A stretch of 64,000 bases of DNA from Amphiura filiformis (Eukaryota; Echinodermata; Ophiuroidea; Amphilepidida; Amphiuridae). Numbering within the stretch: position 1 is the first letter of the stretch; each line of letters opens with the position of its first letter. The position numbers and the translations under genes are program-made. The stretch lies in the NCBI RefSeq assembly GCF_039555335.1, contig NC_092635.1:54813755-54877754 (forward strand). Direction: 5' to 3'. The notes beneath the pieces were generated by a model. The model did no database searches. It saw nothing but the letters and a program-made list of their open reading frames with translations, and was not told where the DNA came from. Positions 3,962 to 61,540 of the stretch are shown here, piece after piece.

Positions 3962-4122
3962 AAAATCCATACATCACTCCCTTTGGAAGACATCACCTTA
4001 TTCTCCTAAACAGAGAGTGTGAATTTCAAATGGGGTTGCCTAAATGGGTGACTCCATTTGAAATCTACACCCCCTGTGTTAGAAGATTTAGGGTAATGTC
4101 TTACATATGGGTGCAGGGGTAG
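3948..4122. mobile_element. ~190-bp palindromic MITE family (GGCTATTCCAGTTGAAATCC), copy 1
   Basis: A diverged copy with TTGGAAGACATCACCTTATT and the central inverted TCAAATGGGGTTGCC / ACTCCATTTGAAATC. Confidence 0.6.
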
Positions 4123-7662: not shown

Positions 7663-7935
7663 CTAAAAGAAAATATGTATTGCTAAGAGAAAAAATGTAT
7701 TGCTAAAAGAAAAAATGTATTGCTAAAAGAAAAAATGTATTGCTAAAAGAAAAAATGTATTGCTAAAAGAAAAAATGTAGAAAAAATGTATTGCTAAAAG
7801 AAAAAATGTATTGCTAAAAGAAAAAATGTATTGCTAAAAGAAAAAATGTAGAAAAAATGTATTGCTAAAAGATAAAAATTGAAAAAATGTATTGCTAAAA
7901 GAAAAAATGTATTGCTAAAAGAAAAAATGTACTGC
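7663..7935. repeat. 20-bp tandem repeat array with some 11-bp short units
   Basis: The unit is TATTGCTAAAAGAAAAAATG, repeated about a dozen times. At two or more places a shortened unit (TAGAAAAAATG) interrupts the phase. The first and last units are diverged. Frames read across it are only repeat peptides. Confidence 0.95.
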
Positions 7936-8417
7936 TCTCCACAAATGGTCCCAAAAATAATATAACAATCCCAAAAAATATAATAATAATGCCAAGTCTT
8001 GAAAGCAACCATATTCATCAAATTTGATGACTTTAGATTTGCACAATTTAAAATGTATCCATAAATATTTTAGATGTTTTGAAAGGCAAAATTGGCCAAA
8101 TATGAAAATTTTGCTAGATAGTTCCAAATAATGTAAAGGATCAGGATTAGGCTATGTTTCATTTGGCAAAATGGTATAACATTTTCAAAATCCAAAACAA
8201 TTAATGCTGTATTTTTCTGGAATTAGGAGGAATACTTATTTTTAGGTATAGATGAGACAGGAAGGTGATAGGGATAGAGGTGTATGCTTATTTAACATCA
8301 CCTTGGTGATTGGAATGCATCAATTAATATCACATGAGTTCAAAAATTAGGGTTAGATTTCTACAGTTCTGGTTGAAGGTATTTATGCTCTTCTTTTTCT
8401 TGATATTTAAAACCTGA

Positions 8418-19640: not shown

Positions 19641-20722
19641 ACAATCGAATAATTTTCTGGGATTTTCTGGGTACCCATGTTAAAACCGGGGTTTCTGGAG
19701 GTAACCTCTATCAAGACTTGTTTTAAGTAAATATATACCCCAAGCGGGACCAGATTTCTATAAAAACATACACTTAATAGGACTAGACTAGTTTTTGCCA
19801 GGAGTTTCGATGAAAGTCCCCCTAGAAGTGCACAAATATGACAACTATTGAATCAGAAATGAATTTTGAAAGTCACATTTCGTTTTATTTTTTATCAAAA
19901 ATTCCCAAAAATGAAAATTTGGCACCCCTTTAGAGACTAGAAGAGGTGCATTTGATATCCCTAGCAGAACTATAAGAGACTAGGAATATGATATCCCTAT
20001 ATTGAGCAGGCATCCGCAAATAACGCGTTCCCGGGTGGCGCACAACACCCTTTGATTTAAAATTTGTGTATTTATTTGTAATTTTATGTCTGTTGAAATA
20101 AATGAACGCATGCACAAAAACATGCCAGGAGATCCCTCCTATACCACTTTCATTGGCCCTAAGGCGGAACCCTGGACCCCATGCATATGCTATGCTCTAT
20201 TTGGTTAATAGTTATTTCATTTTTTATTGTGGCACTTCACAGAATCTATTTGAGAATGCCTGCTATAGAGTCATTTTTTGGATTTGATACCACTAAATTG
20301 GATTCTCTGGACTAGCACTAGTCTCGCTTTTTTCGGATCAGGCATGATACCCAGCCAGAATCCCAGGTACCCCCTGGATATTTTAACCCTTGGGTCTGAA
20401 AAGTACAGACCCTGTCCCATGTTTACCGGGGGTCACCTTATTTACAAAAGGGGCTATTTTGGGGCTGCATCTAATGGAAGTAATAATTATTAGTACCCCG
20501 CCATCCATATTCTATGCAGCTTTATTGAACTTCCCCAGATGGTGAATTGTTTCCAACAATAACAACAAAATGTTATGACACAGCAAAATAATAATAGCAA
20601 TTGAACACAATTGTTTCCTTTGTAGTTTTATATCAAATATACCAAACATGTTCACAAATTCACAGTGATACAATATAAAAATACTACATACGAAATTTTA
20701 ATCTTTCTAGGAGATCAACATT

Positions 20723-20907
20723 GGGCTATTCCATTTAATCCATACACCCCCTCTGGAAGACATGACCTTAATCTCCCACACAGGGGTGTAGATTTCAAAT
20801 GGAGTCGCCCATTCAAATGACCCCATTTGAAATTCACACTTCCTGTGTGGAAGATTAAGGTCATGTCTTCCATAGGAGTGTATGGATTTCAACAGGAATA
20901 CCCCATT
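20723..20907. mobile_element. ~190-bp palindromic MITE family, copy 2
   Basis: Arms with GGAAGACATGACCTTAATCT and its complement AGATTAAGGTCATGTCTTCC around the centre TCGCCCATTCAAATGACC. Confidence 0.85.
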
Positions 20908-24458: not shown

Positions 24459-24464
24459 TTTAAT
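24459..24464 (-). terminator. Candidate poly(A) signal for DUOXA last exon B
   Basis: ATTAAA on the minus strand about 90 bp past the stop at 24553. A GT-rich stretch (GGGTGTCGTGATGTTG) follows 20-50 bp further on, the expected place for a downstream cleavage element. Confidence 0.5.
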
Positions 24465-24552: not shown

Positions 24553-24703
24553 TTATTCAGTTTTTGGAGCTTCTTCTGTTTCAGCAGGTGGAGCAGCTTC
24601 TTCATCAGCTGCCTTTTCTTTTAATTGTAGATCTGACATTTGGACAGCTCCTGAACCTCCATTTACTGGTTTCACAGAGTCTCCGTTCATTCCACCATGG
24701 TCT
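24553..24703 (-). CDS. DUOXA: DUOXA alternative last exon B, acidic tail
   Basis: Terminal exon with a strong acceptor (pyrimidine-rich, CTTCTACAG) and TAA at 24555-24553. It encodes about 50 residues, Gly/Asn-rich at first and then acidic and alanine-rich (KAADEEAAPPAETEEAPKTE). It also matches the phase 2 donor of exon 8, so it can replace exon A without a frame change. A foldback repeat ends about 90 bp upstream of the acceptor. Confidence 0.72.
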
Positions 24704-27700
24704 CTGTAGAAGGCAAGGTAAGGTAAGCATATGCCAGTGTAGATAGATTTAACATTATACGAGTGGATATTCATACATACGTAGTGGTATAAAAAAGATT
24801 TTAACTGAGTTTAACTTCAACATTACACTATTTTTCGCTCACATGGAATGTTTCCACTTGTTCTACTAGAGTCCTCAGCAGATCGTACTTGTTGTACAGG
24901 TGAAAACGTTCCAGGTGAGTGATAGATAATAATAGTGCTGAACTCTTTTAATTAGTATTCAACATGAATTTATTTGTGTCAATTCACCTTCGTAGTGAAT
25001 ACATCATACCTTAGTCACTGGTTTGCGCTTGGTTTGCATACCCATTGACTTTGTTTTGTGATAATTTTGATCATGGTCCTGAACACAGATATCCTGAACC
25101 AGTTGACCTGACAAAGTTTGATTTTAACATCACACTATGGTGGTGAATAGACAAATACAGGGCGCTATTCCATATACCCCAACAGAAGATGATCTTCATC
25201 TTCCACACAGAGAGTGTGAATTCCATTTGAAATCTACACCCTAGTGGGAGATTAAGGGCATGTCTTCCATATGGGGATATGATTTCAACTGGAATAGCTC
25301 AATGTTTCTGTTAGTGGAGTAGCTGCATTTATACCAATACACCAATGAAAGTATCAAAATAAATATTTTCTTAAATTCACAAGGATTTAAAATAGATAGT
25401 TTCATGTAGTTTGAGACCTGAAACATACAACTTATAAATGTAAAACATATGTTTAAAATAAGTTGTGTATATTGAAACTATACATTAAGCAAAAGCTATT
25501 ATTATATTTTAGCTTATTTTATAGCTTTTTTGTTGCACTAGGTCAAACATTTGCCTATCTCAACAATTTGCAGAACTCTGCATTGCTGATATCATTATCA
25601 TGCGTTGGTACAATCAGCAATGGTGCTATTCAAAATGACTGGTAGTGGTACCTGTTAGTTCCTAGTGATTATGGACAAGACTGTCACATCATAATGCAAT
25701 ATAATATCCATCTAAATTGTAGATTAATGTTATGAAGTTCATAAAACTAAAAATCTTCTCATCAAATTTATAGGTCATCCACACCCTCGTCAGGAACCAT
25801 CTCATCAATTAATAGGACAATCTTGTCAATGCATCTACCAGAGTTTCGCCAGACGCCAGGCATACAACCAATCAACCTGAGGACAACCAAGTGAATCTAC
25901 CAGGAGAACTGAAACTGAAGATCTTTGGTCGTGAAAATGCTACATTGCAACTATTATCAACACAGCTGTTGTCAAATCAAGTCAAGTATACTATTTTGCA
26001 ACCATTACAATATTATTTGTAATATACATTTCGATATTAAAACAACAACTTCAATAGTTGATACTTTCAAATAACAAACGAAATAAGAGAACTGATGCAT
26101 CACCACAAATATTATTTTGTATTATCTTTTTTTATCCTGGTGAAGGCCACTTACTAAATAATTGTCTGATTAAAGTGCAATACCAAGGTAACATGGTACA
26201 GAATCTTTGTGAAACAGAAACTATCTAGAAAAACTTTCACAGACTAGGGCAATAAGATGTCAGAGAAAAAAAGTATCTTTATGTTTAAAACAATGCAACA
26301 CTTTATTGTTTTCTTCTGTTTTTTAAACTGTGGCTGTGGGTAAAGCACATGTATGAAGGAGATGGTACTTTCCTGCCAAAAAGTGGGTCTTATGTTAATC
26401 TTCCGAGGTCCTATCTTAGAACTGGTAAATAATTTACATGTCAAATGTAAAGTTGTAATTGTTATTTGTTAATACACGTTATGTGGATAGACCTGTCTAT
26501 ACATTTCATTGTCAAATCTGAATATGGTTCATTATGTCAAAGGGATTATAACAACATAATGCTAATATATAGTTTTCATATATTTATTTATTGCCATACA
26601 GGTAGATTACTTTGTTTTACTATTGGTGAATACTAGGTAAGTACATGAATATCTTTGAGATTTTTGTCTGTGTAAACTATATTTAAGTATGATTTTATAC
26701 TAGTAGGATTAGAATGGTAATGATCAGTTATTACAGTATTTGTTAAGGCCATACCAGTGCAGAGTATCCAATTCCCAACAAAGACACAAATACACAACAA
26801 AATTTGAATTATGGCCACCTACACAGGTACACCGTTTCCAAGGGGGTGCCAAAGTACCCAACGGGTACACCCCTGTGGGTGATAACCTCCAACCGGAGGT
26901 GTTTGAACAGTATAGAGCAGAAGAAGTACACACATACATGTAGTACCAAGGCTGGTACTGCACAGGACCCACAAGCAATACTACTGCACTGGTGTTCCTG
27001 TGGTACTACACTGGTTCTCCCCTGGTACTGCATAGTACCGGCCAAGGTACTTTGTGACGATCGTGTACCTGTGTAGACAGCCCCAATAGCAATCTTGTAG
27101 TGAATATTTAGAATGTTTTGATAACATTACCATTTGGGTTGTAGAATTGTTTTGAAACATTTCATCAACACGCACAATTTCTTGCAGTCCATATAAGTGA
27201 AACCAAGTTCTACTGTTCCATGGTGATAATATTTAATTTTCTTTTCTTTAAAGGTTGTTTGGCACAATTACATGGTATGATTACTGAATACTCTTAATTA
27301 TTTTGAATGCAAAGCCACTTTTTTTATTCATCTAAATACAAGAGGGCAATCATTATGATGAGTCATTCTGATTGTCAACAATCACTACCTTCAAATATGA
27401 ATCTAATGCCTTTAACTGAAATGGACTTAACAAGTGGATTCAATATTAATTTTAAACAGTTATACTAAAATATGTACAGTACCAATTCTGTGTTGTAGGT
27501 GTATTCATGACTGTTTTTAATTAATGCGGACATTGACGTATGCTTCATCCGTTGTGGGCTTTTCCGTGTTGTTCCCTGGCTTGTGTGTTGGAACTTCATA
27601 GGTTGTATTAGGTGTTGGAACCTCGTAGGTTGTATCAGCTTGCATAACGCCTCCCATTTCCATTTGATCTTTCCTTTGTCCGTTTTTATGTGCGTACAGT

Positions 27701-30700
27701 GATCGTGAGCCATTTTGTCTGAAGTTACCAATGTAAATGGAGTTCACATCAAAGTTGATATAAGGTCTAAATTCATGTTGCTATGAATGCTGCAGTGCTG
27801 ATTTTTGCAACGGCAAATAGGCTGTTCCAGTTGAAATCCATACACCCTTATGGGAGACATCACCTTAATCTCCCACACAGGGGGTGTAGATTTCAAATGA
27901 AGTCACCCATAGTCGGGTAACCCCATTTGAAATTTGCACTCCCTGTGTGGAATATTAAGGTCATGCCTTTCATATGGGGTGTATGGATGTCAACTGGAAT
28001 AGCCCAATAGACACAAACCGACAGTACAGAATCGCCACCAGAAGCCTCCACAAGCATAGGAGTTTGTCCAGATTGTTTTGCAACACATTGCCCAATTCTC
28101 GCTATTCGCAATAAGGGCGCCGTCAGCGGTTTGCGATGTATCATGGGAAAAATAGTGATGTATCATGGGAAAAATTAATTGTGCACATTTCAAATCACAT
28201 TATTAAGTATTATTGAGAATGGATTCGCGTGTAACACCTTTATTTTGACAAACTGAAAAATATATTGTCACGTTGTTCCTATGTAATAGCATGGTAATAA
28301 AATTAATTGTGACTTGATGTCACATTATTTTCCCATGATACATCACCTTTATTTTTTCCCATGATATATCGTGTAAACTGCTGGCGGCGCTTTATTGCGT
28401 AATAGCTAGAATTAGCATGTTATTTGTTATGTTTTTGCAACATTACCAGAAGCATCCACAAGCCTGAAAGTTTTACCAGGTTTCTTTTTGCACCACATTG
28501 AATGAGCTTGTTATTTGTTATGTTCTTGCAACATTGTGTTCTAATCACAATACACATACAAAGTTATGGTTCCGAATTACTACCAGAAACCTCATGTCCA
28601 GGTATTTTTGCACCAAATTGATCGATTAGCTTGTTATTTGTTGTTTTTGCAACTTTTATTGTTATAATAGCAATGCAATCAAAGCTATGTCGTCATCATT
28701 TGTTTAGAATCACCACCAGAAGCATGCGAGTTTTACCCCCGGTTTTACCAGGTTTGTATTTTGCACCACATTGACTGATTAGCTCGTTATATGTTAACTT
28801 TTAATATTCTAATGACAATACAATCAAAGTTATGTAAGCTATACTTTGGTTTAGACCTACATGTTAGTTGTCCAGTTTAATTATACCAAGAAATATGCAA
28901 AAAAACAACCACCTTTACATCTCAATGTTATGTGTGTGCTAATTGTATGCCTATACCGGGGCCTATACTCATGTTATTTAAAAAGGGTAAATTGCCAAGT
29001 AATCAAGTGTGAAGTAGATGTGTTTATTAATAATTTATTTTAAAAGTGATTTATTTAGCATTATATTTTCATATTTCTAAAGTTACAATTGACTGATTGC
29101 AAATATTTTTGAAGTTGCAAATGGTTAAGTTGAAAAAAAATGTGAATATGATTTAAAATGTTATATTGGCTTACTAGACTTACTTTGTTGTTTTCTGTTG
29201 GAAGCTTTATTCTGTATCTCCGATTCTATGCTATTTTAATTTTATTCCAGAAATGTCAAGTCTAGCTATTTTATAGGCTTTAGTACAGAGCTCCCATGTA
29301 TTTTTGTTTATTGATAATCCTATGATAAACAAGTAGCTCAGCCCCAATTTATTGCAAAGGATCATCTCTTATACTTCTCTTATACTTGTTTTCAGCAAAG
29401 ATGTCACCCTGACATGCCATCGGACATGCCCGAGGAGTTTTGCTGATATGAATGCAACAAAGCAAATATATTATGGTGTCTCCGCAGGTTTTCATTGTTA
29501 TTGACTTTTAAGCCATTCCTTAAAAGGGATCACTGATATTACCATTAATATCTCTTCAAAAATGATAAAGGTAACATCCTGGCTGAAATAGGTAATGGTG
29601 AGCCTATTGCAAAGTCCTAGCACACACTTTAACCACAAGTAACACATATTGCAGGAAACAATAGCACCAGGACACACACCTAGCAAATTGATCCCAAAGC
29701 AGGAAGTACATACACCAAAGATCACAGCAAAAATGCCTATACTTGAAAATGCTGTTTAAAACAACCCTGGGTGAACTAAAAATTAACCCTCTCCATGCGG
29801 GTGTCTACCGCAGATGGCAATTTTTATTTAATTCAAAAATGTCAAAATTGTACATTTTTATGTCCATATTTTGAATCTGCATGAAAAATGCATTAAAATG
29901 AGTACAAATAAGCCTAGCATTGATTGATTCAGTGCTTTTGATATTTTGAGAAAAATAACTTTGAAGCCAATGGCTATGGCATGCAGAGCATCAAACAAGT
30001 AGTTCAAAATTCTTAATCATTCTTAATGAATATTTTAAGCACTATTTTATTCACCCACCAAACAGTGTTGCTTAAACTTTTAAACAGTGTTTAATGTGTA
30101 TCAATTTCCTATAGTCATCAAATATCAACATAATAGCTTATTCAGTTATAATTTACTGGCTAATATTGCACAATGATTTCATTAGACAGTACTAAATGGT
30201 GTTGTGTAATTAAGAATAAAGGGTAAGGCATTATCATTTACACCTAAATAAATATAATTCATAATACAATGTGTATATTTTCAATCTTGAACTTACAAAA
30301 TGCATCTTTGTGTATGAAAGTAAAATTAGCATGAAGCTAACTAAACATTTGCAAGCTCAATGAAGCTTATTTAGTTACAGAGAAAACTATGAGACAAGCC
30401 TGCATACATAAAAAGACCTATAGTTGCAATGTAGCATCTACAGGACAGAATACCAAGTCTACCAATTTCAGACAACACTTTGAAACATGAGGAAAGGCAC
30501 AAGCAGCAAGAGAATAACAATAACAATGGCTGTGTCATTCCATTTAAAATCCAGCACTACCCCTGTGGAAGATTTTGGGAATATCTTTCACAGGGGGAGA
30601 TTTTCAAATGGAATTAGCACATTAACTGACTCTTTTGTAACTCACCCTCCCTCTATGGAAGATTCATGTTGAATCTTTCTTAGAGGGTGTATAAAATTCC

Positions 30701-33700
30701 TATGGAGCTGCCTAATATGTTCATTCTATTTGAACTTCATACTCCCCATGTAGAAGATATATCCAAATTCTTCCACAGGGGTAGTGTGGATTTTAAAAGG
30801 AAGAGCTCAATAGTCTCCTCCGCCGCCAGATTGATTTCGCTTGATCACCCCACACAAACAGTCTGCCAAATGGCAATGATAACACAAGCTCTATTTGATA
30901 GGCTAAAATCTTTTACGATGTGAAAGCATGTCATCCAGCACGAATTGTAACGAAGCTTTCAATAAGTTAATGACCATTCATGATTCATCGTGAGCATAGT
31001 CACATGTAATCGAACTCGGCTGAACACAAGAATAGTGCCGGGATTTGTTTCGGACAGATGCCAATCAGGACTGGCATTATATCATGTTACAATTGGCAGA
31101 CGTTTTGTGTGGAGATCGAGCGGAATCAAACTAGCCGCTGTGGAGACTAACAATAGCACCATATAGAACACTACTTGCGATTCCAGAAAAATATTGCACA
31201 CATTTTTTTTTGCCAATTGCCAATAAAAGTCAGATTGCAATATTTTTCCAAGTCGTTTGAAAGTGGGCCAAAAACATGTATTTCACATAGCATAAGTCGA
31301 CTCATTCATAAATTTTTGAGTGTGGGCTTTTTTCATAATTTGAATATATATTTTGATAATTGTGACGTGTCATGTCAAAAGGAGACACTTTTGGGCAGGT
31401 TATCAATTTTGAGATTTTTACATATCCTAAATATAGAGATATTTTGCTCCACTCGGCCGTTTTCCCCAATGAAATCGGACATTCCTAAGCGAAGATATTG
31501 AGTTCGTAAGTTATGGTATTATAAAATTGGGAATTGAGATATCAGCCTTTAAAAATATTATTGACAATGTTGGGAATAGGAATTTCCTTGAAAAATGTTT
31601 GAAAAAATACAAGATACCAGTTATATTCCGGTCTGAAACTATCAGACAATATTTTTAACATTAATAACATCACAAATTCGCAACAAACCCAAATTGTGAA
31701 AAAAATACCACCGGGTAGATTATTGGCTATTTCTCCATTTACGATCCTGCCCAAAAGTGTTTCCTTTTGACATGACACGTCACAATTGGTTATAAAATAG
31801 ATTAGAAACTTTAGTTTTCAAAAAACTTAAAATGGATAACCTGAAATTAATCTTTGCACAAGTCTTCGGGCTTGATTACACAACATACGTAAAATACCCT
31901 AAAAACGCATGTTTTGACCGTTATTCCCAATAATTTGACTTTTGATGTCAGTTAGTTTTAACTATAAAGGATTAGGATTTGGCTAAGTTACAGTTGGCAA
32001 AACAGGATAATATGTTTTTAATCCCAAGTAATGAGTGCTGTATTTTCCTAGAATCAGGAGTGGAACCTGGCACACTACATGTAGACTAAGGTCATGTTCA
32101 CACTATGCCTGTTTTGCCCTGTGTCCCGGGTACAACCCGGGTTGGTTATAAGTGTGAACAGGAAAAAACCTCAAAAAAAATCGACCCGGGTCAATTTTTT
32201 TCAACCTAGGAAAGAGTATGTTAAAACACGTGTCAAATCTGGTTATGACTCGGGTCAATTGTAGTGTGAACAGAAATTCACTGTTTGACCCGCATTACTA
32301 GAAGTAAACATAACCATTATCACCCCATTTCTATTGTGTCTGTCTGCACTGGGAAAAGAATGATTCAGTTCTTTGGCAATAAAATCAATAAACATCTATT
32401 CCTGAGATAAGAAAGTTATTTTCATGCAAACAAATTACTAGTATTATCGAATCAAGAAGTAAAAATTTTTTTTCTGAGTTATTAACCCAAGACAGAAGCA
32501 ACTAGATAAATTACATAAGGTGGAATTAGAAAATAAAATTTAAAAAATTAGCATAGTTAGGCCGGGAGCCTGTTATATATACCGGTAATAGTCAATGACA
32601 GAATATGTATACGCCTGCATCATCAGTAGGCTTAGGTAAAATAATCAACCCGGGTCAATTTTCTTCATGAGAGTGGCTATAGTGTGAACAGAGATTTTTT
32701 GACCCCGGGACCCGGGTACAACCCGGATTAACCCGGTCCCGGGTAAATAATTCATATGTGAACATGACCTAAGCATCACATATCAACTGCAACAAGATGT
32801 AGTTGTTTTATCTAGAAACCTTTTATCAAATGTGGTATGAGCAAGCAAAATCAGTCTGAAGTCAAGCATATTCAGGTTTCATTTTTCTACTTTGATGTAT
32901 GAAGCATTTGCAAAGCTACATTTTGCAGAAAACCATTGAAATTGGCAAATAAGCAATTGAAGGGTTCCAAAACCCTATAGCAAAGAGAAATCATTTTGTT
33001 TGACTATATCTCAAAATCAATATTTCCGACTTCTACTGCTTTTGCTTGATAACATCACAAATATTGAATATGAAATTGCAACTTATTTTGTTACATTACA
33101 CTTTTATTAACAAATGTAATATATTGGAAGATTTGTCTCTCTCTCTCTCTAGCTCACTCAACTCTCTCTGTACCACTGGCATACCAGGCAAAATTTTCTA
33201 AGTGGGTCAAACTTGCTGACTCAAGAGGAACAAGAATATAGTGGCCTCAATTCAAATGTGTTATTCCAGTTGAAATCCATTCACCCCTATGAAAGACATG
33301 ACTTTAATCTTCCACACAGGTAGTGTTAATTTCAAATGCATATACCTGAATGGGTTATTCCATTTCAAATCTACATCCACGTGTGTTAGGCTGGGAGATA
33401 AGGTTTTGTCTTCCATATGGGGGTGTAAGGATTTCAACTGGAATAGCCCAGTGTTAAGCCTCAACTTGAGCTCACTGAATAGGGCTTTCAAAGTATTATT
33501 TATTTAGTTCTATGTCATTTTGGTTCACTTGTTGTGACAGCTATCCCACAGGTTGAACATGAAGTTTGTAAATAGTTTTATGGAATAAAGAATGTATAAA
33601 TGTCCTTGTGGGGGAACAAATAAGATCACCAAGGAGCAGACAACTTCCAGGGCTACATAAATGCCAAAAAATGCTTGGTCTACTCTCTGTGCCAAATAAA

Positions 33701-36700
33701 TCTGTGCCCCACCCTCAAGCACATGCTATGAAACTAAATTTGCAAATCTTGAATGGTCTATAAATGATGCAAGCAAGATAATTTGGCATATTTCCATACT
33801 TTTTTTGTAAGCCTTTGTAGAACATTTTAAGAAAAGGTACCCCATAAACACATGTATCTGTGCTACCCCCATTTTAACCTGCAAAACGTTTCTTGCCCCC
33901 CTCCCCCATTTTGGGTTGCCAAATATTTCTCCCTCCCCCATTTCATTTTACCCGGGGCTGATAATTATTACACAGTCCCCAAAAGTTATATAATACCTGT
34001 ACTGTACATTGGCTGTGCACCCCATACACCACCCCCTGAACACACACCCGCACAAACACTCCTTCCAAAATCAATTAAAACATCACCACTATAAGCAATA
34101 CAAAGCCAATGGGACAAGAAGTACTTACGTGGTCTCTGGTTCTGGTTCTTCAGCTATTGCCTCTTGTCCCTGTGAGTAACGAGGTGCTGGCTTAGGTTGA
34201 CGTCTGGTCTTCTTTGTCTTAGATCGCTGCTTGAATTGAGGTCTGCTTGCCACTTGCTGTTAGATGAGTACCATATGGTGAAGGAATATGGCAGCAAGTA
34301 CAAGGTGCATGGAAAGGAAAGACAAGATGTATAGGATTAGCATTGGTAAACATCCATTTCTATTTCATCATTTTTTTCATCTGTACATGTCATACGACAG
34401 TCAACATTAATAGGTAAATTTTCACAGGAAAATTTTCTGGACACGTGACCAATGCATATCAATGTGAGTGTAACCTCGAGCCTGATCCCTGACCCCCGGC
34501 GGTGACCTCGCTATTCAAGTATAGTATTCTTGGCCGCAATTTTGATAGAAATTTGTGCATTGCAAATTTATTGAATATTATGTAATCTTAATTTCTTCAC
34601 AATATCATTAAAACGTAATTTCAAAAATATCTATTTATGGAAAAAAATATTTATCTACGGAAACTCTTACCATAATATTATAAACTTGCGACAAGTCACT
34701 TATTTTGCATCAAAGGAGGAATTCTTCCTATTCAAATACATTGGAAGACCACCCGCTGTGCTCGGGGTCACATTCCATAATGCTAATGTGTGTGCGCCCA
34801 TGGGTGTCACGTGTACAGAAAAATTTCCCGTGAAAATGTACCTATTAATTTTGACTGTACGAGATGATCATTGATAAAATCGAGGGTTTAGGGTACCTAT
34901 CTGCAATAGCTGCCCTTAAAACATTTAACAATGTCTAGATCCTATATCTAAAATATGACATCTGGCAGCTATTGTAGGTAAGGCCTTCTTGCCCTGAACC
35001 ACCGAAATGACAATGCAACTAGACCCGTCTTAGACATGAAACCTGTTGCTCTGCGAGTAGCCTTTAAAGGCCCATTCAGTGATTTGCTCATCCGGATGAT
35101 CGTAAAAATCATCCAAATTCAGATTTTGGTACCATTGTCATTGTCATAGATGTATAACATAGCATGCGAGTGGTTCAGCCGAAAGCTGTGTATTTAAGAC
35201 AAAATAAGGCATTTTACACGAATCTGTAATATATACTGACAGTATATAAATTAGTTACATGTATTTGAATGGGGCTTCAACTACATCAATACTGCTGTTT
35301 TCTTGTTATTTTGCCAAATTTTTCATTTCAAAAATACCAAAATAATGACAATTTGAATGACTTATCCTTCACTTTTAAGCAATTTATATACAATTTGTTT
35401 TACACTTGCGCTAGGATCACTGAATGGGTCTTTAATGTTGTTGCTATATGAGGCAAATACCCTAAATTGATGAAGATAATTTTAATGATTTGGATCACAT
35501 TATCATCATCATCATGGTCATCATTTTCCGTCATCATCACCATCATCATCGCATCTAACCCTAGCAGTAAAATATAGGGTTGAAATGTGCAATATCGGGC
35601 CAATGGGTAATTTAAGGAGTTTCAAGTTTACAATATCATACACCATAATATCAAATGGCGTCATATGATGTGGTATTTCTCCGTAGATGTTGCAGAAGAG
35701 GGCATTATCAAGATTCAAGAGATTCAGGATTCTTTTATTGTTCAAAACCTTACTAATAAGGTACAGAACATAAGCACTTAACATAAAATTTCAGTACGGC
35801 ACAACAATTTCAGGAGTTCATTCGAAATCAGTGCACCCACTGTGTGAATTTCAAATGGGATGACCTGAATGGGTGACTCAATTTGAAATCAACACCCCCT
35901 GTGTGGAAGATTAAGGTCATATCTTCTGCAGGGTGTGTATGGATTTCAACTGGAATCGCCCATTGCTGGATTGATCCCATGTGTAAAATAAAAGATTTGC
36001 TTACCGGAGGTGCATCATCTGACATTGCCATGGCTGGGGTCTCGCCGTGTTCATCCTCATTTTCGTACACAAATGTTTCCTCAAAATCTATCAGAGGATC
36101 GACATTGAAGAAGGAACTGACTTTTTCTGGCTCAAAATAATCCAAGAGTACCACAAGAAGTCCGCATACTACCGAGACAATACCTGCAGAAAAACGTATG
36201 AGCACAAGTCTACTGGTAATTTCATAATATTTACTCCATAATTTATGCATTACATTATTATCTAACAGAATATATCCCATTCAGTTATGAAAGCTATAAC
36301 ATGCACAGGGGCAGTTCCCTTAAATCAAGAAAAAGCCTGCCAAAACAGTCAAATTTCAGCCAATTTTAGCCTCTGAGCACCTCTCCCCCATTGACAATCT
36401 TGGAGCCGTCCCTGATACAGTGTGAGATTGCCATTGGGATGTATGGTTGAAGTCGAACATATTACCATTGGCAAGTGATAATCAATGCCAGGATCGATGC
36501 AAATAACTGATGGTTTACAAATAGCACATTTATTGATATAGACAAAGTGATATAGACACAGTTATAATATCTAACCCTAACATTAATCATAACATAGTCG
36601 CTACTAAATAGTGGCTTGTTAACTACTGGAGTAACACTGTTGCACTGGCAACAAACAGTCCCAAGTTTTCACCCAATCAGATGTGTCCTTTTACTATTAT

Positions 36701-39700: not shown

Positions 39701-42700
39701 CATAATTTGTACTTACACATGATTGATACTAATATATAGGAGCCTATAAAGAACCGTATCGAAGCGTATAGCCGCTGTAAATTGAAAAAAGAAAAGAACG
39801 TGCATTAAATTAAGTATAGGCCTACATGTAGGCCCAAATGTAAGTCTACAAACTGATGTTATAATCTTCTGATACAAATGACAAGATACTGTTTTAAAAA
39901 GGAAAAACTTATCAATATTTAGGCCTATGCCGTTTGTTTAAAGTAAATTGGACATCGTTTTCATATCACAAAGATTTATTGCCTATTTTGGGCAGGGCCA
40001 GATTAACCTTTTTGGGGGCCCTGCTGCAGGGCCAGATTAACCTTTTTGGGGGCCCTGCTGCCAGCCGAAAATTTGGAGGCCCCCAACGCACTGTGAGGAA
40101 GGCATGTGCCCTCAAGCAGTGGCCAGCTCGGGGGTAGGGGCTCGCGTAGCAAGCGAGGGGGACAGGGTGGACGAAGTCCATGGGCCCCGCGAGTTCAGGG
40201 ACCCCGAGCAATAAAGCAAAAATTAAATAAGGGCTGATAATGGAGATGATAAAAGCAGACCCGGGTTTACCATTGGGCCAGATGGGCCCGGGTCCAGGGC
40301 CCCCAAAATTTAGGTGCAGTGCTTATGATTAATGCAATTGTTGCCAATATTGCTAAAAACAGTGCCTATAAGTTTGCCCATGGTCCTTTTATTTAGCATA
40401 ATTTTGCCTTCATAATTAATGACTTAAAGGAGTATTTCGTGATCCTAGCATCCTCTATTTATGTCATTTTCATTAGATATCCACGGAAAAACCTATTCCC
40501 AAAATTTCAGTTGATTCCGATTTTGCGTTCGCGAGTTATGCATGATTATGACGTGTATTATTACACTGCTCCATAGACAATGCGTTGTAATTTCGTTCTG
40601 GTGCACCAGAACGAAATTCAAATTTCACGATATTTTTGCTAAACGAATTAATCTGCAAGAAATATTTTGTACATTAACATTATGTAGCCAGAGGTTTCCA
40701 ATGATATAAAAATCTCAACTTTTTTTGAGAAAAGTTGGGGGATGAGGCTGTGGATCACGAAATGCCCTTTTAATTTACATAGGCCTAATTGCTAATTATG
40801 CAAATTATGTGGAGGCAATGTATTGTACAAGTCACTATATTATTATGCCACTTAAGCTCAATTTTAGACCCAAATTATGAAAGTTAACATTGGGGACTAT
40901 TTGGCATAAGCACTTTGATTAACGCATAGCTTTTACCTTGGTACTTGGTAGTTCTTCCTCCTAAATACTCCAAAAAGAGTTTTAACTGGAGGTCGGAGAG
41001 AGTGGTCTAATTGATGTGAATTGCAGGGTCGGATTTGAGAGCTGTTTTGAAGGTCAATGGTGAAGGCTGTTCTACTGTGGTATGAAGGAGTCTGTTCCAT
41101 TCCCTGGTGGTTCGGATGAAGAATGAGTTTGCATTTGCATCTGTGTTTGTGTGTTGCTGCTGGAATTGCTGTGAGTGTCCTCTTCTGGGTCTGGTTGTTT
41201 TGGGCTTGATGTGGTCGGAGTGCTTAATCTCCAGGTGGCCATTCAGGATCTTATAGAAGCAGGTAAGCCGATGGCACTTCCTTCTTTCCTGAAGCGAGGA
41301 CCAATTCAATTCTTTCAGGATGGCAGTGATGCTGGTATCTTGCCCATAAGTGTTGGACACAAATCTTGCAGCCCTCTTCTGGACTCTTTCAATGGTGTCA
41401 ATGTTCTTCTTGGTAAAGGGGTCCCAAGAAGCTGTGGCATAGTCTAAGTGGGGTCTAACGAGCGTCAAGTACAATTTTTCCTTGACAGATGGAGCACAGT
41501 GATAAAAATTTCTTCTGATGAAGTTAAGCACCCTGGTTGCTTTTGATGTAGCATACTCTGTCTGTTTGTTCCAACGAAGATCACGTTGAAAGTGGACACC
41601 TAAATACTGGGTATTATTCGTCTCCTCTAGGTCGACTCCCATCATGGAGTAGTTGCAAGGTTCTGGATTCCTCTTGCGGGTGATCCTCATGGTTTTACAC
41701 TTTGATGGATTAAATCTCATGCCCCATGTTTGGGCCCATTCAACCATTTTGTCTAAATCTGCTTGTAGCTGGTGTTCATCTTCAGCTGACTTGATGTTGT
41801 TGTAAACCAGGCAATCATCAGCAAATAAGCGGGTGGTACTAGAGATGTTTTCATGGATGTCATTTATGAACATGAGGAAGAGATGAGGACCCAAAACTGT
41901 CCCCTGTGGAGCTCCACTGAGAACTGGTTTCCAGTCGGATGAGTTCCCATTCACCACTACACGCTGGAAACGTTTGGTTAAGAAGGAAGCAATCCACTCT
42001 TTGGTTTTATTTCTGATGCCATAATATCCTATCTTGAGAAGTAGCCGGTTATGTGGCATGACATCGAAAGCTTTTGAGAAGTCAAGCACTCCCAAGTCAG
42101 TAGTATGTTTACTGTCCAGATTCTGTAGCAAATCTTGTGAAGTGAGGATGAGTTGGGTTTCGCAGGATCTCGCTTTACGAAAAGCATGTTGGTTGTCTGC
42201 GATGATGTTAAACTTGTTCAAGTGTCTCATCACCTGACTATCCACGATGTGCTCCAACAATTTGCAACATGTACTGGTCAAGGACACCGGCCTGTAATTG
42301 GCAGGATCGGTGGTGGTACCTTTCTTGAAAATGGGGCTTATGTTTGCTCTCCTCCAGTCGAGTGGCAATGAACCAGAGTCCAAGGACTGTTGAAATATGA
42401 AAGTCAATATAGGCGCAAGTTCGTGAGCCGCCAGTTTCAAGGCCTGGTTCTGGATCTCATCTGGTCCAATTGCTTTGGAAACTTTGATGTCGTTAAGAAG
42501 TTTCTCGACTCCTTCAGTCTGGATTTTAATCTCAGGCATGTCTGGGTATGGACTATCAGGCAAAATGGGCATTGATTCCGGATCTGAGTCTTCTCTTGTA
42601 AAAACACTCTGGAACTGGTTAGCAAGAACCTGGGCTTTATCAGAGTCACTTGTAAACAGCTCGCCGTCAACCTTCAGTGGCTGCACACCAGTGTTATCTT

Positions 42701-44177
42701 GGCGTCTGGATCTGATGTAACGCCAAAATATTTTGGGGTCTTCTGACTCAGCTACTGTCTGCACATGTTCTCTGTGTGCCTTCCGGAGAGCTCGGTCCAC
42801 TTGCTTGCGGATACTGCAGAACTTATCCCAATCAGATGTTAAACCACTCTTCTTTGCTCTCACGTAAGCTTTTTCCTTCTTGCTGCAGAGGCGCTTCATC
42901 TTGGAGTTAAACCACGGTGCCGGCGGTCTACCTTTAACACGCTTATGTGGAACTAGTTCAACCACGAGCGAGTTCAGAGAATCTTTAAACCAGGTCCAAT
43001 TTCCTCTACGGTACTTGTCTCCGGCAGACGAGCAAAGAATTCTTCGCTCAAAATAGACGATCTTGCTTTGAACTCACTCTCGTCGACCTTACGCCACAGA
43101 GGGATGTTTCTGGGGGGTTTAACTTGAAGCTTGGCTTTGGTGGAAATGGTGCTCTGGATGATGCAATGATCACTTATGCCTGCATGTGGCCTCACATTTT
43201 GCATCAGAGAAGGATGAGTGGTGAGCAATAAATCAAGTGTGTTCTCAGTCCCATTCACATCTTTCCTGGTAGGAAAATTCACTTTCTGTGACAGGAAATT
43301 ATCATTAATAATTTGGATCAATGAAGTTTGGAGTTCACCTCTGGGTATCACTTCCTCATCAAATAAAATTAATGTTATTCTCCGTCAAACAAAACGAAGC
43401 ACCCGATTTGTCTCAGATTTTGAGAATGATGATCATGGATCCTTTGCCCCTTTATGATAAGTACATGTATAAACTTCAACAACTGATGTCCGTGGATGCC
43501 AGTCTTGCTGCATGCAGTGGCGGCGCCACCGTGGGGAAAAATGCCCCCCCCCCCTTCATAACTCGTTCCACTACCCCGATGCCCCCCCCAAAAAAAAAAA
43601 CCACCCCAAATTAAGACAATTTCCACTTTTTGCTGATTTTACCCACCCTGAAAATTAATTTTTCCCCCTCCCCCTCCGTTGTTCTCCAAGCCCCCACCCC
43701 CATAACCGAGGTCATTCTTGAAGGACTAAACTTTTCTTTTGAGGACATTTCCAAAATCGGGATATTTCCCGAAAAAAATTGAGAACATTTTGAAAAAAGG
43801 ACCCATCCATATACCAAAATAATTGGCCTAGAAAAGGGGGCCATGGATGCTAGTATATACCAAAAGGCGAAATGTTACCGCCCCCCCACCAATGTTTGCG
43901 GACCTCCCCGTGCCGTGTGTTCATGATCCACAGTTAATTGCCGCACTTAGATGATTTCAAACTAATTGTAGGCCTAATTGGTATCAATTTTAAGTGCCTA
44001 TATTGTACTCACTTGCCATCCTCGTATACCAGGAATAATGAAGATAAAGCTCACAATCACGATCAGAAATGCGGTAACAAATCCAATTTCCAAAACATCC
44101 ACAGTAACAGCAGTTTTCAACGGACCATAGGCTGCTGGATAGCCCTCATTCCTTAGGGCACTATATGGAGCACCCAT
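24553..44177 (-). CDS. DUOXA: Dual oxidase maturation factor (DUOXA), whole coding span, two alternative last exons
   Basis: DUOXA is an ER/plasma-membrane partner that lets dual oxidase mature, leave the ER and release H2O2. Joined exons: 44177-44013, 39774-39717, 39138-39001, 38005-37907, 37484-37331, 36969-36755, 36183-36005, 34256-34129, then either 27766-27517 or 24703-24553. Predicted proteins are 461 or 428 residues, longer than human DUOXA1 (343) because of the tail. All junctions have GT/AG and matching phases. About five membrane segments are visible (residues 32-50, 61-76, 198-222, 225-246, 267-290). The long loop between the second and third holds the family-typical VNITL glycosylation site (N116), INYNERF (133-139) and SYRLAGYYT (192-200). 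The start codon has A at -3 and G at +4. The gene is divergent to DUOX on the other strand. Family call is near certain from recognised motifs; exon ends are read by eye. Confidence 0.93.
24796..24955. mobile_element. Foldback element ending ~90 bp upstream of DUOXA last exon B acceptor
   Basis: The left TTCAACATTACACTATTTTT and right AATAATAGTGCTGAACTC arms pair imperfectly around GTCCTCAGCAGATCGTAC. A single related arm occurs at 13,197-13,290 (CTTCAACACTACACTATTTT ... GTCTTCAGCAGAT). Confidence 0.6.
25161..25303. mobile_element. ~190-bp palindromic MITE family, copy 3
   Basis: A shortened copy: the left arm has a diverged end and the right arm ends GATTTCAACTGGAATAGCTC. It lies in the DUOXA intron before last exon B. 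Confidence 0.7.
26812..27085. mobile_element. Foldback element with CCTACACAGGTACAC ends
   Basis: The left GGCCACCTACACAGGTACAC and right GTGTACCTGTGTAGACAGCC are inverted. The interior is rich in GGTACC/GGTACT motifs. Confidence 0.7.
27323..27328 (-). terminator. Candidate poly(A) signal for DUOXA last exon A
   Basis: AATAAA on the minus strand about 190 bp past the stop at 27517. It is the nearest canonical hexamer downstream. The GU-rich element after it is weak. Confidence 0.45.
27517..27766 (-). CDS. DUOXA: DUOXA alternative last exon A, tyrosine-rich tail
   Basis: Terminal exon with TAA at 27519-27517. An acceptor AG just before 27766 gives an in-frame start (PYINFDVNSIYIGN). A second possible acceptor before 27718 is in the same frame and would shorten the tail by 16 residues. 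The tail has a tandem YEVPT repeat (two TTYEVPT units) and ends AYVNVRIN. It fits the phase 2 donor of exon 8. The AATAAA at 27328-27323 lies about 190 bp downstream. Acceptor pyrimidine tracts are weak, so the exact start is uncertain. Mutually exclusive use with exon B is inferred, since A contains a stop. Confidence 0.72.
27819..28008. mobile_element. ~190-bp palindromic MITE family, copy 4, just upstream of DUOXA last exon A
   Basis: A complete copy from GGCTGTTCCAGTTGAAATCC to GTCAACTGGAATAGCCC. Its edge is about 53 bp from the acceptor of DUOXA last exon A (27766). Confidence 0.85.
28010..28805. repeat. Degenerate long-unit tandem repeat interrupted by a foldback element
   Basis: The block with CACCAGAAGCnTCCACAAGC, GTTTTACCAGGTTT, TTTGCACCACATTGA and TTGTTATTTGTTATGTTnTTGCAAC recurs about four times (near 28,030, 28,440, 28,575 and 28,705) at roughly 130-bp spacing. 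The first unit is separated by the element at 28,099-28,408. Confidence 0.6.
28099..28408. mobile_element. Foldback element with CGATGTATCATGGGAAAA arms
   Basis: The ends CTATTCGCAATAAGGGCGCC and GGCGGCGCTTTATTGCGTAA are inverted, as are GATGTATCATGGGAAAAA (twice on the left) and TTTTCCCATGATACATC (twice on the right). Confidence 0.75.
28806..30525. other. DUOXA intron 8 DNA, no further feature recognised
   Basis: Lies between exon 8 and last exon A. No exon with matching phase and splice signals stands out. Confidence 0.45.
30531..30815. mobile_element. Related longer foldback element
   Basis: The ends TTAAAATCCAGCACTACCCC and GGGGTAGTGTGGATTTTAAA are inverted. The outer design resembles the ~190-bp family but the interior differs. 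The lower-scoring open frames here are repeat readings. Confidence 0.65.
31355..31790. mobile_element. MITE with 42-bp inverted ends (ATTGTGACGTGTCATGTCAA)
   Basis: The left ATTGTGACGTGTCATGTCAA...CACTTTTGGGCAGG is the inverse of the right CCTGCCCAAAAGTGT...GACATGACACGTCACAAT. The interior matches 56,045-56,435. Confidence 0.8.
32086..32773. mobile_element. Foldback element with CTAAGGTCATGTTCACA ends
   Basis: The ends CTAAGGTCATGTTCACACTA / ATGTGAACATGACCTAAG are inverted. Multiple CCCGGGTACAACCCGG and GACCCGGGTCAA motifs repeat inside in both directions. Confidence 0.75.
33130..33172. repeat. Imperfect CT-rich microsatellite
   Basis: TCTCTCTCTCTCTCT run followed by an imperfect CT-rich stretch in DUOXA intron 8. 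Confidence 0.7.
33260..33450. mobile_element. ~190-bp palindromic MITE family, copy 5
   Basis: From GTTATTCCAGTTGAAATCCA to GATTTCAACTGGAATAGCCC, with the usual central inverted blocks. In DUOXA intron 8. Confidence 0.8.
34129..34256 (-). CDS. DUOXA: DUOXA exon 8, basic cytosolic tail segment
   Basis: A 128-bp exon between AACAG and GTAAGT, phase 0 in and phase 2 out. It encodes about 42 residues with a polybasic run (KQRSKTKKTRRQPK) followed by an acidic EEPEPETT end. I see no counterpart in the human tail. It is called from splice signals, an open frame and phase fit. Confidence 0.78.
35500..35556. repeat. ATC/CAT trinucleotide-rich stretch in DUOXA intron 7
   Basis: Interrupted CATCAT units on the plus strand. 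Confidence 0.8.
35821..35964. mobile_element. ~190-bp palindromic MITE family, copy 6, next to the DUOXA exon 7 donor
   Basis: The left arm is eroded and the right arm is complete (GGATTTCAACTGGAATCGCC). It lies about 40 bp inside intron 7. Confidence 0.75.
36005..36183 (-). CDS. DUOXA: DUOXA exon 7
   Basis: Encodes residues 277-336: the last membrane segment (SVVCGLLVVLLDYF) followed by the cytosolic tail start. VSSFFNVDPLIDFEE parallels the human LKAFFN...DPMLEW stretch. It ends in phase 0 at a GTAAGC donor. A palindromic repeat begins only about 40 bp beyond the donor, inside intron 7. Confidence 0.93.
36755..36969 (-). CDS. DUOXA: DUOXA exon 6
   Basis: Encodes residues 205-276, the hydrophobic core with membrane segments 3 and 4 and the start of 5. 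YGAYFLMATGV corresponds to YGGYMLLATGI of the human protein. The loop after segment 4 (SEMIIPFTDEKKLIFHKGAS) matches the position of the human loop ending LHLGAS. Acceptor CTACAG, donor GTAAGT. Confidence 0.94.
37331..37484 (-). CDS. DUOXA: DUOXA exon 5
   Basis: Encodes residues 154-205: the end of the luminal loop and the entry to membrane segment 3. The blocks PYPILWIAEYFT and GRSYRLAGYYTWIILW match the VLYLAEKFT and YRLAGHYTSAMLW blocks of human DUOXA1. Acceptor CAACAG; donor GTACAT is weaker than its neighbours. Confidence 0.93.
37907..38005 (-). CDS. DUOXA: DUOXA exon 4
   Basis: Encodes residues 121-153, with EVINYNERFHF matching the ETINYNEEF block of vertebrate DUOXA in the luminal loop. 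Acceptor TTTCCAG, donor GTAAGT, phase 1 to 1, so exons 3 and 4 are both symmetric. Confidence 0.92.
38608..38880. repeat. Long polypyrimidine tract in DUOXA intron 3
   Basis: About 270 bp almost wholly C/T on the plus strand (TTTCTTTTCTTTTTTCC and similar), i.e. polypurine in the DUOXA transcript. Not a simple period. Confidence 0.85.
39001..39138 (-). CDS. DUOXA: DUOXA exon 3
   Basis: Encodes residues 75-120 of the large extracellular/luminal loop. TYYKAFETHEIEADIGVKIG and VNITL align well with the human SYKAF...ADIGLQVGL...VNITL region. N116 of NIT is the conserved N-glycosylation site. Acceptor TACACAG, donor GTAGGC, phase 1 to 1. Confidence 0.93.
39717..39774 (-). CDS. DUOXA: DUOXA exon 2
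   Basis: A short 58-bp exon with acceptor TTTACAG and donor GTAAGT, entering in phase 0 and leaving in phase 1. It encodes about 19 residues (RLYASIRFFIGSYILVSIM) forming the second membrane segment. It is supported by the phase match to both neighbours and by the hydrophobic profile expected at this place in the family. Confidence 0.85.
39990..40060. repeat. 34-bp direct duplication, GCAGGGCCAGATTAACC
   Basis: Two perfect adjacent copies of GCAGGGCCAGATTAACC followed by TTTTTGGGGGCCCTGCT. Confidence 0.9.
40425..40772. mobile_element. Foldback family with GTGATCC ends and GGTGCACC centre, copy 1
   Basis: The ends AAAGGAGTATTTCGTGATCC / GGATCACGAAATGCCCTTTT are inverted. The centre is the perfect palindrome ATTTCGTTCTGGTGCACCAG and its complement. 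Confidence 0.75.
41007..42965 (-). CDS. LINE reverse transcriptase (jockey/CR1-like), 652 aa open frame
   Basis: Reverse transcriptase part of a non-LTR retrotransposon, used for target-primed copying. Visible RT motifs: GPDEIQ (168-173), NYRPVSLT (223-230), LDFSKAFD (294-301, catalytic Asp 295), GAPQGTVLGP (351-360), RLFADDCLVY (379-388, the FADD catalytic pair), and the C-terminal RPHLDYATASWDP and ERVQKRAARFV typical of jockey/CR1-type elements. The frame is open throughout. It continues upstream from the endonuclease piece in another frame, so one small indel near 42,980-42,990 breaks the original ORF. The copy lies in DUOXA intron 1, in sense with the gene. Confidence 0.92.
   Translation of the reverse strand: MVELVPHKRVKGRPPAPWFNSKMKRLCSKKEKAYVRAKKSGLTSDWDKFCSIRKQVDRALRKAHREHVQTVAESEDPKIFWRYIRSRRQDNTGVQPLKVDGELFTSDSDKAQVLANQFQSVFTREDSDPESMPILPDSPYPDMPEIKIQTEGVEKLLNDIKVSKAIGPDEIQNQALKLAAHELAPILTFIFQQSLDSGSLPLDWRRANISPIFKKGTTTDPANYRPVSLTSTCCKLLEHIVDSQVMRHLNKFNIIADNQHAFRKARSCETQLILTSQDLLQNLDSKHTTDLGVLDFSKAFDVMPHNRLLLKIGYYGIRNKTKEWIASFLTKRFQRVVVNGNSSDWKPVLSGAPQGTVLGPHLFLMFINDIHENISSTTRLFADDCLVYNNIKSAEDEHQLQADLDKMVEWAQTWGMRFNPSKCKTMRITRKRNPEPCNYSMMGVDLEETNNTQYLGVHFQRDLRWNKQTEYATSKATRVLNFIRRNFYHCAPSVKEKLYLTLVRPHLDYATASWDPFTKKNIDTIERVQKRAARFVSNTYGQDTSITAILKELNWSSLQERRKCHRLTCFYKILNGHLEIKHSDHIKPKTTRPRRGHSQQFQQQHTNTDANANSFFIRTTREWNRLLHTTVEQPSPLTFKTALKSDPAIHIN
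42974..43395 (-). pseudogene. LINE endonuclease domain, C-terminal remnant
   Basis: This is the 3' part of the apurinic-like endonuclease domain of the same LINE. NFPTRKDVNGTENTLDLLLT and the GISDHCIIQSTI block (SDH motif) are typical of the end of this domain. A stop at 42,976-42,974 follows a frame change relative to the RT frame. Upstream of about 43,395 the frame is closed and similarity stops, so the element is 5'-truncated, as is usual for LINEs. Confidence 0.85.
44013..44177 (-). CDS. DUOXA: DUOXA exon 1
   Basis: Encodes residues 1-55 and ends in phase 0 at a GTGAGT donor. It holds the short N-terminus (starting MGAPYSALRNEG) and the first membrane segment, ending in IIPGIRGW, a stretch matching the start of vertebrate DUOXA proteins. 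The ATG at 44177 is the first one in frame with this exon and has a strong Kozak context. Confidence 0.93.
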
Positions 44178-61256: not shown

Positions 61257-61540
61257 CACCATGAAGTAGCCGGCGACGGACAGTATGCCAAGGGTACCCG
61301 GCTTGCCTGGGTTGAATCCTAGCATACAGCGTGCAGCGGACTTGCCTCGGCCGGTCTGTAGCACGCAGCGTGCCAGTGGAACCCGGGCTTGCCTGGGTTG
61401 ATCCACGGCACGCAGCACGCTTCGTTCGCCCCGCAAGGGTCGAATGAAAACGTGCATGGGTTTAGCAGAGACGATACGGGGCTAACGCTTCAGGTGTAGT
61501 CTTAGCAGAACCAACTGGGGTTGTCACACGGCAGCGTTCC

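What the first reader, a model, noticed from the sequence alone, without database searches (positions are those of the whole stretch)
24553..34256. DUOXA has two mutually exclusive last exons giving different cytosolic tails
The exon 8 donor (phase 2) fits acceptors at both 27,766 (or 27,718) and 24,703. Each last exon has its own stop and its own candidate poly(A) signal. Tail A has about six tyrosine motifs, including a duplicated YEVP and a terminal YVNV (a Y-x-N pattern of the kind bound by Grb2-type SH2 domains). Tail B is short, Glu/Ala-rich and has no tyrosine. This would let splicing switch a signalling-competent tail on or off.
Basis: partly seen in the sequence, partly recalled or inferred. 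Interest (0 to 1): 0.75.

Follow-up and report, generated by a model that had tools for sequence, protein, structure and literature searches.

The report
Brittle-star DUOXA with optional tyrosine tail
A brittle-star gene for a helper protein of a hydrogen-peroxide-making enzyme has one confirmed ending and one predicted, still unproven, alternative ending that carries a tyrosine motif seen in many related invertebrate proteins.

Summary
The window holds the Amphiura filiformis (brittle star) DUOXA gene. Exons 1-8 plus tail B (24703-24553) give exactly the 428-aa NCBI protein "isoform X2" (P0001). Tail A (27718-27517) is an open, phase-matched, hydrophilic 66-codon frame with its own stop and AATAAA, but I found no transcript or homologue of it. 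ORF length is not evidence (43 phase-matched frames of 45 aa or more) and codon bias is neutral.

The best support is family-wide. Y-x-N occurs in the cytosolic tails of 50 of 66 non-redundant invertebrate DUOXAs (9.5 expected; 0 of 1000 shuffles; 49 of 65 without P0001), and in 0 of 117 scored mammalian-type DUOXA1 tails. Tail A's TDEAYVNVR ranks 2nd of 77,152 open 9-mers for this profile. Annotated sea urchin isoforms differ likewise: X1 has two Y-E-N, X3 none. Three other echinoderm alternative-type tails lack it.

Anatomy partly confirmed; tail A use about 50%; the signalling switch is inference. "No tyrosine" holds for exon B alone: shared exon 7 has YEN.

The parts
44013..44177 (-). DUOXA exon 1 (coding part, from ATG)
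   Evidence: identical to P0001
39717..39774 (-). DUOXA exon 2
   Evidence: P0001
39001..39138 (-). DUOXA exon 3
   Evidence: P0001
37907..38005 (-). DUOXA exon 4
   Evidence: P0001
37331..37484 (-). DUOXA exon 5
   Evidence: P0001
36755..36969 (-). DUOXA exon 6
   Evidence: P0001
36005..36183 (-). DUOXA exon 7 (ends phase 0; encodes the shared VYENED)
   Evidence: P0001
34129..34256 (-). DUOXA exon 8 (basic segment; phase 2 donor at 34129; reading into the intron stops at once)
   Evidence: P0001
24553..24703 (-). Tail B, confirmed last exon (49 residues plus stop)
24459..24464 (-). ATTAAA, candidate poly(A) signal of tail B
27517..27718 (-). Tail A, candidate alternative last exon, best acceptor (66 residues plus stop; YEVP x2, YVNV)
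27719..27766 (-). Extension of tail A if the weak acceptor 27766 is used (adds PYIN and YIGN)
27767..27780 (-). Further extension in frame with exon 7 (phase 0), weak acceptor at 27780
27526..27552 (-). TDEAYVNVR, Y-x-N site ranked 2nd of 77,152 open 9-mers of the window
27323..27328 (-). AATAAA, candidate poly(A) signal of tail A

Best explanation
This is the Amphiura filiformis DUOXA gene, encoding the multispanning partner that brings the H2O2-producing dual oxidase to the membrane. It has one confirmed C-terminal exon (tail B) and, most likely, a second last exon in intron 8 (tail A, entered at 27718). Tail A would give the cytosolic tail a Y-x-N phosphotyrosine docking site (YVNV) of the kind most of the invertebrate DUOXAs examined carry, plus two YEVP sites. 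Shown: gene, exon phases, tail B, the motif match and the Y-x-N enrichment in the family. Inferred: use of tail A, by competition of the weaker, nearer acceptor and poly(A) site with the stronger, distal one. Also inferred: phosphorylation of the tyrosine when DUOX-derived H2O2 or a receptor tilts the kinase/phosphatase balance, and recruitment of a Grb2-type SH2 adaptor to the DUOX complex.
For: Exon model and phases. Pfam DuoxA E 2.8e-84. P0001 identical through tail B. 27718 is in the top 2.5% of 486 local AGs and, narrowly, the best-scoring one among those listed that open a phase-2 frame of 50 aa or more (5.70; next is 26421, 58 aa, 5.30). Y-x-N in 50 of 66 tails against 9.5 expected, 0 of 1000 shuffles reach the site count; 49 of 65 without P0001. 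N-x-Y, Y-x-x-N and F-x-N are not enriched. A profile trained without P0001, P0002 and P0022 ranks TDEAYVNVR 2nd of 77,152 open 9-mers. Y-[DE]-x-P, as in YEVP, is also enriched: 12 of 66 against 3.0. Hydrophobic content of tail A is as low in only 3.4% of 910 sampled open windows. S. purpuratus X1 and X3 share 342 aa, then split into a tail with YENG and YENT and a tail with no Y-x-N. pYVNV is the high-affinity Grb2 site of Shc Tyr317 (PMC10968029, passages).
Against: No tail A homologue: 10 candidates, none at E<=10 (only cluster representatives are searched). No listed protein ends in tail A; P0001's cluster has 2 members and isoform X1 could not be read. Codon usage neutral. Tail A does not align significantly to other DUOXA tails by best score (18 of 150 shuffles do as well) or to five chosen tails (57 to 697 of 1000 shuffles). 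Its profile score, 11.3, is below the median of the training sites, 15.2, and the top hit in the window, YQNIYSNYE at 31332-31358, also lies in intron 8 and is probably chance. Alternative-type tails of P0005, P0009 and P0011 lack Y-x-N.
Confidence: 0.5

Rival explanations
1. Tail A is not an exon. It is a chance open frame in intron 8 that happens to contain tyrosine motifs, and DUOXA in this species uses only tail B (plus some unrelated isoform X1).
For: 43 phase-compatible frames of 45 aa or more; neutral codon usage; no homologue; a second, probably chance, profile hit in the same intron; another frame with a nearly equal acceptor (26421).
Against: 27718 combines a good acceptor, correct phase, low hydrophobicity, AATAAA and a site that fits the family profile. 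From the window-wide rate a 66-aa frame would hold such a site with probability about 0.0015 (my arithmetic). In the shared 21-nt part of the two YEVP repeats the only two differences are synonymous.
Confidence: 0.35
2. Tail A is the last exon of a different, nested gene on the same strand in intron 8, not of DUOXA.
For: Tyrosine-motif tails are also typical of receptors (recalled); intron 8 is 9.4 kb.
Against: Ten minus-strand open frames between 27893 and 33947 gave no Pfam match (not every frame there was tested, and small exons would be missed). The motif fits the DUOXA family profile.
Confidence: 0.1
3. Function rival: the conserved Y-x-N is not an SH2 site but part of a PTB-type site of the Numb class. 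Fly DUOXA (NIP) was described as Numb-interacting, and an Asn-to-Ala double mutant is defective in Numb binding (PMC3895674, passages).
For: N-x-x-F in 17 of 66 tails against 8.1 (2 of 500 shuffles); Y-x-N-x-x-F in 4 against 0.24; N-P-x-Y in 5 against 0.9.
Against: N-x-x-F is far rarer than Y-x-N (50 of 66) and absent from tail A. The same paper reports that the Numb-binding mutant rescues flies and doubts that the interaction matters.
Confidence: 0.15
4. Function rival: YVNV and related sites are Y-x-x-hydrophobic endocytic signals that set DUOX surface level.
For: YVNV fits the pattern (recalled). [quoted passage not shown]
Against: Y-x-x-[LIMVF] is not enriched in the family (35 sites against 33; 388 of 1000 shuffles as high) and without Asn it is depleted (15 against 32); Asn at +2 is the enriched feature.
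Confidence: 0.08

Closest known systems
Primate DUOXA1 C-terminal isoforms ('isoform 2', 483-aa chain in PDB 7d3e; a mandrill relative of 479 aa, P0136)
   Same: DUOXA protein with alternative C-terminal tails after a common membrane core.
   Different: No Y-x-N in any of the 117 mammalian-type tails scored; the alternative sequence looks unrelated.
Strongylocentrotus purpuratus DUOXA isoforms X1 and X3 (P0008, P0006)
   Same: Identical first 342 aa, then a tyrosine-richer tail with two Y-E-N or a tail without Y-x-N.
   Different: The sequences split before the basic RRRP segment that by eye resembles Amphiura exon 8, so the branch seems to lie one exon earlier (no urchin DNA seen). The X1 tail does not align significantly with tail A (195 of 1000 shuffles).
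Shc Tyr317 (pYVNV), a Grb2 SH2 ligand
   Same: Identical Y-V-N-V core (PMC10968029, passages).
   Different: Shc is a soluble adaptor (recalled); phosphorylation of the DUOXA tail is not shown.
Drosophila NIP/moladietz (fly DUOXA)
   Same: A DUOXA described as anchoring an adaptor (Numb) at the membrane (PMC3895674, passages); mol sustains ROS signalling in regeneration (PMC5550008, passages).
   Different: PTB-type partner; the word 'isoform' does not occur in PMC5550008; the fly sequence was not examined here.

Membership tests
DUOXA family (PF10204) | Profile match over the membrane core | tested here: met
   E 2.8e-84, residues 20-305 of the 428-aa form; human DUOXA1 chain E 1.3e-40
DUOXA family (PF10204) | Head-to-head neighbour DUOX, as in mammals | tested here: inconclusive
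   Four plus-strand open frames beyond the 5' end (45815-46102, 46951-47229, 47986-48279, 49701-50177) gave no Pfam match; smaller exons were not scanned
DUOXA family (PF10204) | Supports maturation and surface delivery of DUOX | not testable with these tools
   Needs expression experiments
Alternative last exon | Common donor in phase with two acceptors, each exon with its own stop and candidate poly(A) signal | tested here: met
Alternative last exon | Both exons present in transcripts | tested here: inconclusive
   Tail B: NCBI isoform X2. Tail A: not found; isoform X1 not readable; no RNA-seq access
Grb2-type pYxN docking tail | Y-x-N in a cytosolic tail | tested here: met
   YVNV in tail A; enrichment in the family; the cytosolic side is taken from knowledge of the family
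Grb2-type pYxN docking tail | Tyrosine phosphorylated and bound by an SH2 protein | not testable with these tools
   Needs biochemistry

The most novel reading that the evidence does not exclude
DUOXA proteins of invertebrates are phosphotyrosine docking subunits of the DUOX complex. A conserved acidic-hydrophobic-Y-[E/V]-N site in their cytosolic tail recruits Grb2-type adaptors, coupling local H2O2 production to Ras/MAPK signalling. Mammalian DUOXA1 lost it, and some echinoderms (sea urchin X1/X3, brittle star tails A/B) placed it under splicing control.
Probability: 0.3. Interest if true: 0.75.

Novelty: new variant of a known kind. Interest (0 to 1): 0.45.

Why it matters
DUOXA is usually described as a trafficking and activity partner of DUOX (PMC7265977, passages). 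A strongly enriched Y-x-N motif in its cytosolic tail, seen in octocorals, molluscs, annelids, arthropods, tunicates and hemichordates among others, suggests that it also docks signalling adaptors beside an H2O2 source. If true, this links redox bursts in wound response and regeneration, which brittle stars perform extensively, to receptor-type signalling. It also makes the role of alternative DUOXA tails testable in sea urchin and brittle star.

Tried and rejected
ORF length as evidence: rejected, 43 comparable phase-matched frames exist.

Homology of tail A to other tails: by best local score not significant (A: 18 of 150 shuffles reach it; long A from 27780: 28 of 150). Against five chosen tails, 195, 59, 409, 697 and 57 of 1000 shuffles reached the score. 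The mean score over 119 tails was higher than in all 150 shuffles for long A and in 147 of 150 for A; I count this as weak because Y-x-N itself contributes.

A hidden urchin- or starfish-type alternative exon in this gene: in tblastn of 13 echinoderm tails against the window, the clear hits in the part of the output I could see were to exons 7, 8 and 9B only; the output was cut in the middle. Four weak hits fell on the tail A frame (E 0.28, 6.3, 15 and 16), none significant.

Exon 7 to 27780 splicing: frame fits, acceptor weak. Nested gene: no Pfam support in the ten frames tested. Endocytic Y-x-x-hydrophobic reading: not enriched.

Identity of NCBI isoform X1: could not be retrieved. P0001's cluster holds two sequences and only the 428-aa one is shown. 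If representatives are the longest members, X1 is not the 445-aa tail A form; unresolved.

Papers: DUOXA with Grb2 (24 papers hold both words, 10 listed), DUOXA with phosphotyrosine (17, 15 listed), DUOXA1 with tyrosine phosphorylation and cytoplasmic tail (1). In the titles and abstract starts shown, none concerns docking on the DUOXA tail; none of these was opened for this point. (wider term sets, listings) showed none either.

Mended on checking: an earlier count called 57 representatives 'non-echinoderm', but three named echinoderms were among them; recounted.
Full report
WHAT IT IS. The gene on the minus strand is a DUOXA (PF10204, E 2.8e-84). Eight exons (44177-44013, 39774-39717, 39138-39001, 38005-37907, 37484-37331, 36969-36755, 36183-36005, 34256-34129) with GT/AG junctions give 378 codons plus two bases for the ninth-exon joint (1136 bases). 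With tail B (24703-24553) the translation is identical to P0001, 428 aa, named by NCBI 'dual oxidase maturation factor 1-like isoform X2 [Amphiura filiformis]'. The window is therefore from this brittle star, and tail B is an annotated C-terminus. A second transcript-derived protein, P0002 (no source name, 79% identical to the query), has an end homologous to tail B (tblastn E 9.6e-07).

TAIL A. From 27718 the frame runs 66 codons after the joint Thr to a TAA ending at 27517, with AATAAA at 27328. I scored acceptors with a small matrix made from the eight supported acceptors of this gene. 27718 scores 5.70, in the top 2.5% of the 486 AGs examined in 34100-24300. 27766 scores -7.70 and 27780 scores -3.72. 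Tail B's site scores 18.88, or 12.76 when left out of its own matrix. Eight sites make a weak matrix; the ranking is a guide only. Among frames of 50 aa or more, 27718 has the best acceptor, but narrowly: 26421 opens 58 aa at 5.30. In all, 43 phase-compatible frames of 45 aa or more exist, so openness proves nothing.

Coding signal is mixed. Codon log-odds are neutral for tail A (-0.048 per codon; 16% of 910 sampled open windows as good or better) and positive for tail B (+0.279). Hydrophobic content is as low in 3.4% of those windows, which lie near 14 kb and 60-63 kb. The two 27-nt YEVP units are in frame. Within ACA ACC TAY GAR GTT CCA ACA they differ only at two synonymous third positions; the remaining two codons differ in sequence and sense. 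Reading from exon 8 straight into the intron stops after one codon.

THE FAMILY-WIDE MOTIF. A homology search found 187 proteins and listed 120. I aligned all 120, cut each tail after the DFEETF column of P0001, and kept 66 representatives below 75% core identity. Y-x-N occurs in 50 of 66 tails (67 sites). Within-tail shuffles give 9.5 proteins and 10.5 sites on average, at most 21 sites in 1000 shuffles. One of the 50 is P0001 itself, through exon 7; without it the count is 49 of 65. Controls: N-x-Y 9 of 66 (9.9 expected) and F-x-N 11 (8.2), Y-x-x-N 9 (9.8). The membrane core has 16 Y-x-N in 21,143 residues, the tails 67 in 7,655. Preferred context is Asp/Glu at -4 to -2, Ile/Leu/Met/Val at -1 and Glu at +1. 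After removing 12 representatives that are or that I took for echinoderms, 43 of 54 have it (8.5 expected). Of 56 named proteins listed, 39 have it. Named species with it include octocorals, molluscs, a brachiopod, annelids, a bryozoan, a priapulid, arthropods, tunicates, an amphioxus and hemichordates. Named proteins without it include Saccoglossus P0041, Ptychodera P0029 and P0094, Pollicipes, Anabrus, Saccostrea P0047, and B. lanceolatum P0033. Y-[DE]-x-P, the YEVP type, is also enriched: 12 of 66 against 3.0.

In another search with a mouse DUOXA1 fragment (678 found, 120 listed; the named ones are mammalian DUOXA1), 117 could be cut at an anchor and 0 of 117 have Y-x-N. Other vertebrates and DUOXA2 were not examined.

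TAIL A AND THE MOTIF. A profile from 98 distinct Y-x-N sites, trained without P0001, P0002 and the Amphiura paralogue P0022, scored all 77,152 stop-free 9-mers of the window in six frames. TDEAYVNVR of tail A ranked second (11.29; the training sites have a median of 15.2). The top one (YQNIYSNYE, 12.34) is also in intron 8 at 31332-31358 and looks like chance; the shared exon 7 site ETFVYENED ranks eleventh (8.39). From the window-wide rate, a 66-aa frame would hold such a site with probability near 0.0015 (my arithmetic).

ECHINODERM PARALLELS. S. purpuratus isoforms X1 and X3 share their first 342 residues. Against a general rule: P0005, whose tail clearly matches the X1 tail (score 200), lacks Y-x-N, and so do the tails of P0009 and of Patiria P0011, which differ from the usual starfish type. 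Over 14 proteins that I assign to this echinoderm clade (some by similarity only; leaving out the Amphiura form, S. purpuratus X1 and crinoid P0018, which has YAN), 1 has Y-x-N (P0014), as expected by chance. Paralogues are mixed: P0016, P0017, P0020, P0021, P0022 and P0046 have it; P0028, P0053 and P0078 do not.

MECHANISM, MOST LIKELY. The nearer, weaker acceptor and poly(A) site of tail A compete with the strong distal tail B acceptor; a splicing or 3'-end factor favouring tail A would add a YVNV tail. Grb2's SH2 recognises pYxNx, and pYVNV is its high-affinity site on Shc (PMC10968029, passages); Asn at +2 is critical (PMC7337045, passages). That DUOX-derived H2O2 inhibits phosphatases and so favours phosphorylation nearby is recalled knowledge. 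The C-terminal region of DUOXA2 matters for sorting of DUOX2 in cultured epithelial cells (PMC11555622, passages). Each step after the sequence is inference.

VERDICT. Anatomy confirmed with corrections; tail A use about 50%; signalling switch plausible but unproven. Exon 7's YEN and exon 8's tyrosine mean that the tail B form is not silent by default. The enriched Y-x-N in invertebrate DUOXA tails is the stronger and more general finding; I found no paper on it in the searches named under Tried and rejected.

Noticed in passing
41007-43073 (-) and 42974-43384 (-), DUOXA intron 1: Non-LTR retrotransposon: 688-aa reverse transcriptase frame (RVT_1 E 5.9e-34) preceded by an endonuclease-type frame (PF14529 E 6.7e-05, below its cut-off).
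   Followed up: partly
27814-28006, also near 59128-59317, 20720-20905, 33262-33450, 3945-4113, 35847-35962, 25216-25303: Short dispersed repeat of about 185 bp that matches itself on both strands; seven places in the window, one 34 nt upstream of the tail A open frame. Probably a MITE-like element.
   Followed up: partly
31402-31787 and 56046-56435: A stretch of intron 8 of about 390 bp repeated at 92% identity 25 kb away.
   Followed up: no
60700-64000 (+): Several long overlapping open frames with no Pfam match in the four tested; possibly a retroelement or unknown gene.
   Followed up: no
7663-7936: Tandem array with a 20-bp unit, about 14 copies.
   Followed up: no
31302-31484 (-), intron 8: Open frame with NIYSNYE that scores above tail A's site in the DUOXA Y-x-N profile; taken as chance, but a second candidate if junction reads point there.
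   Followed up: no
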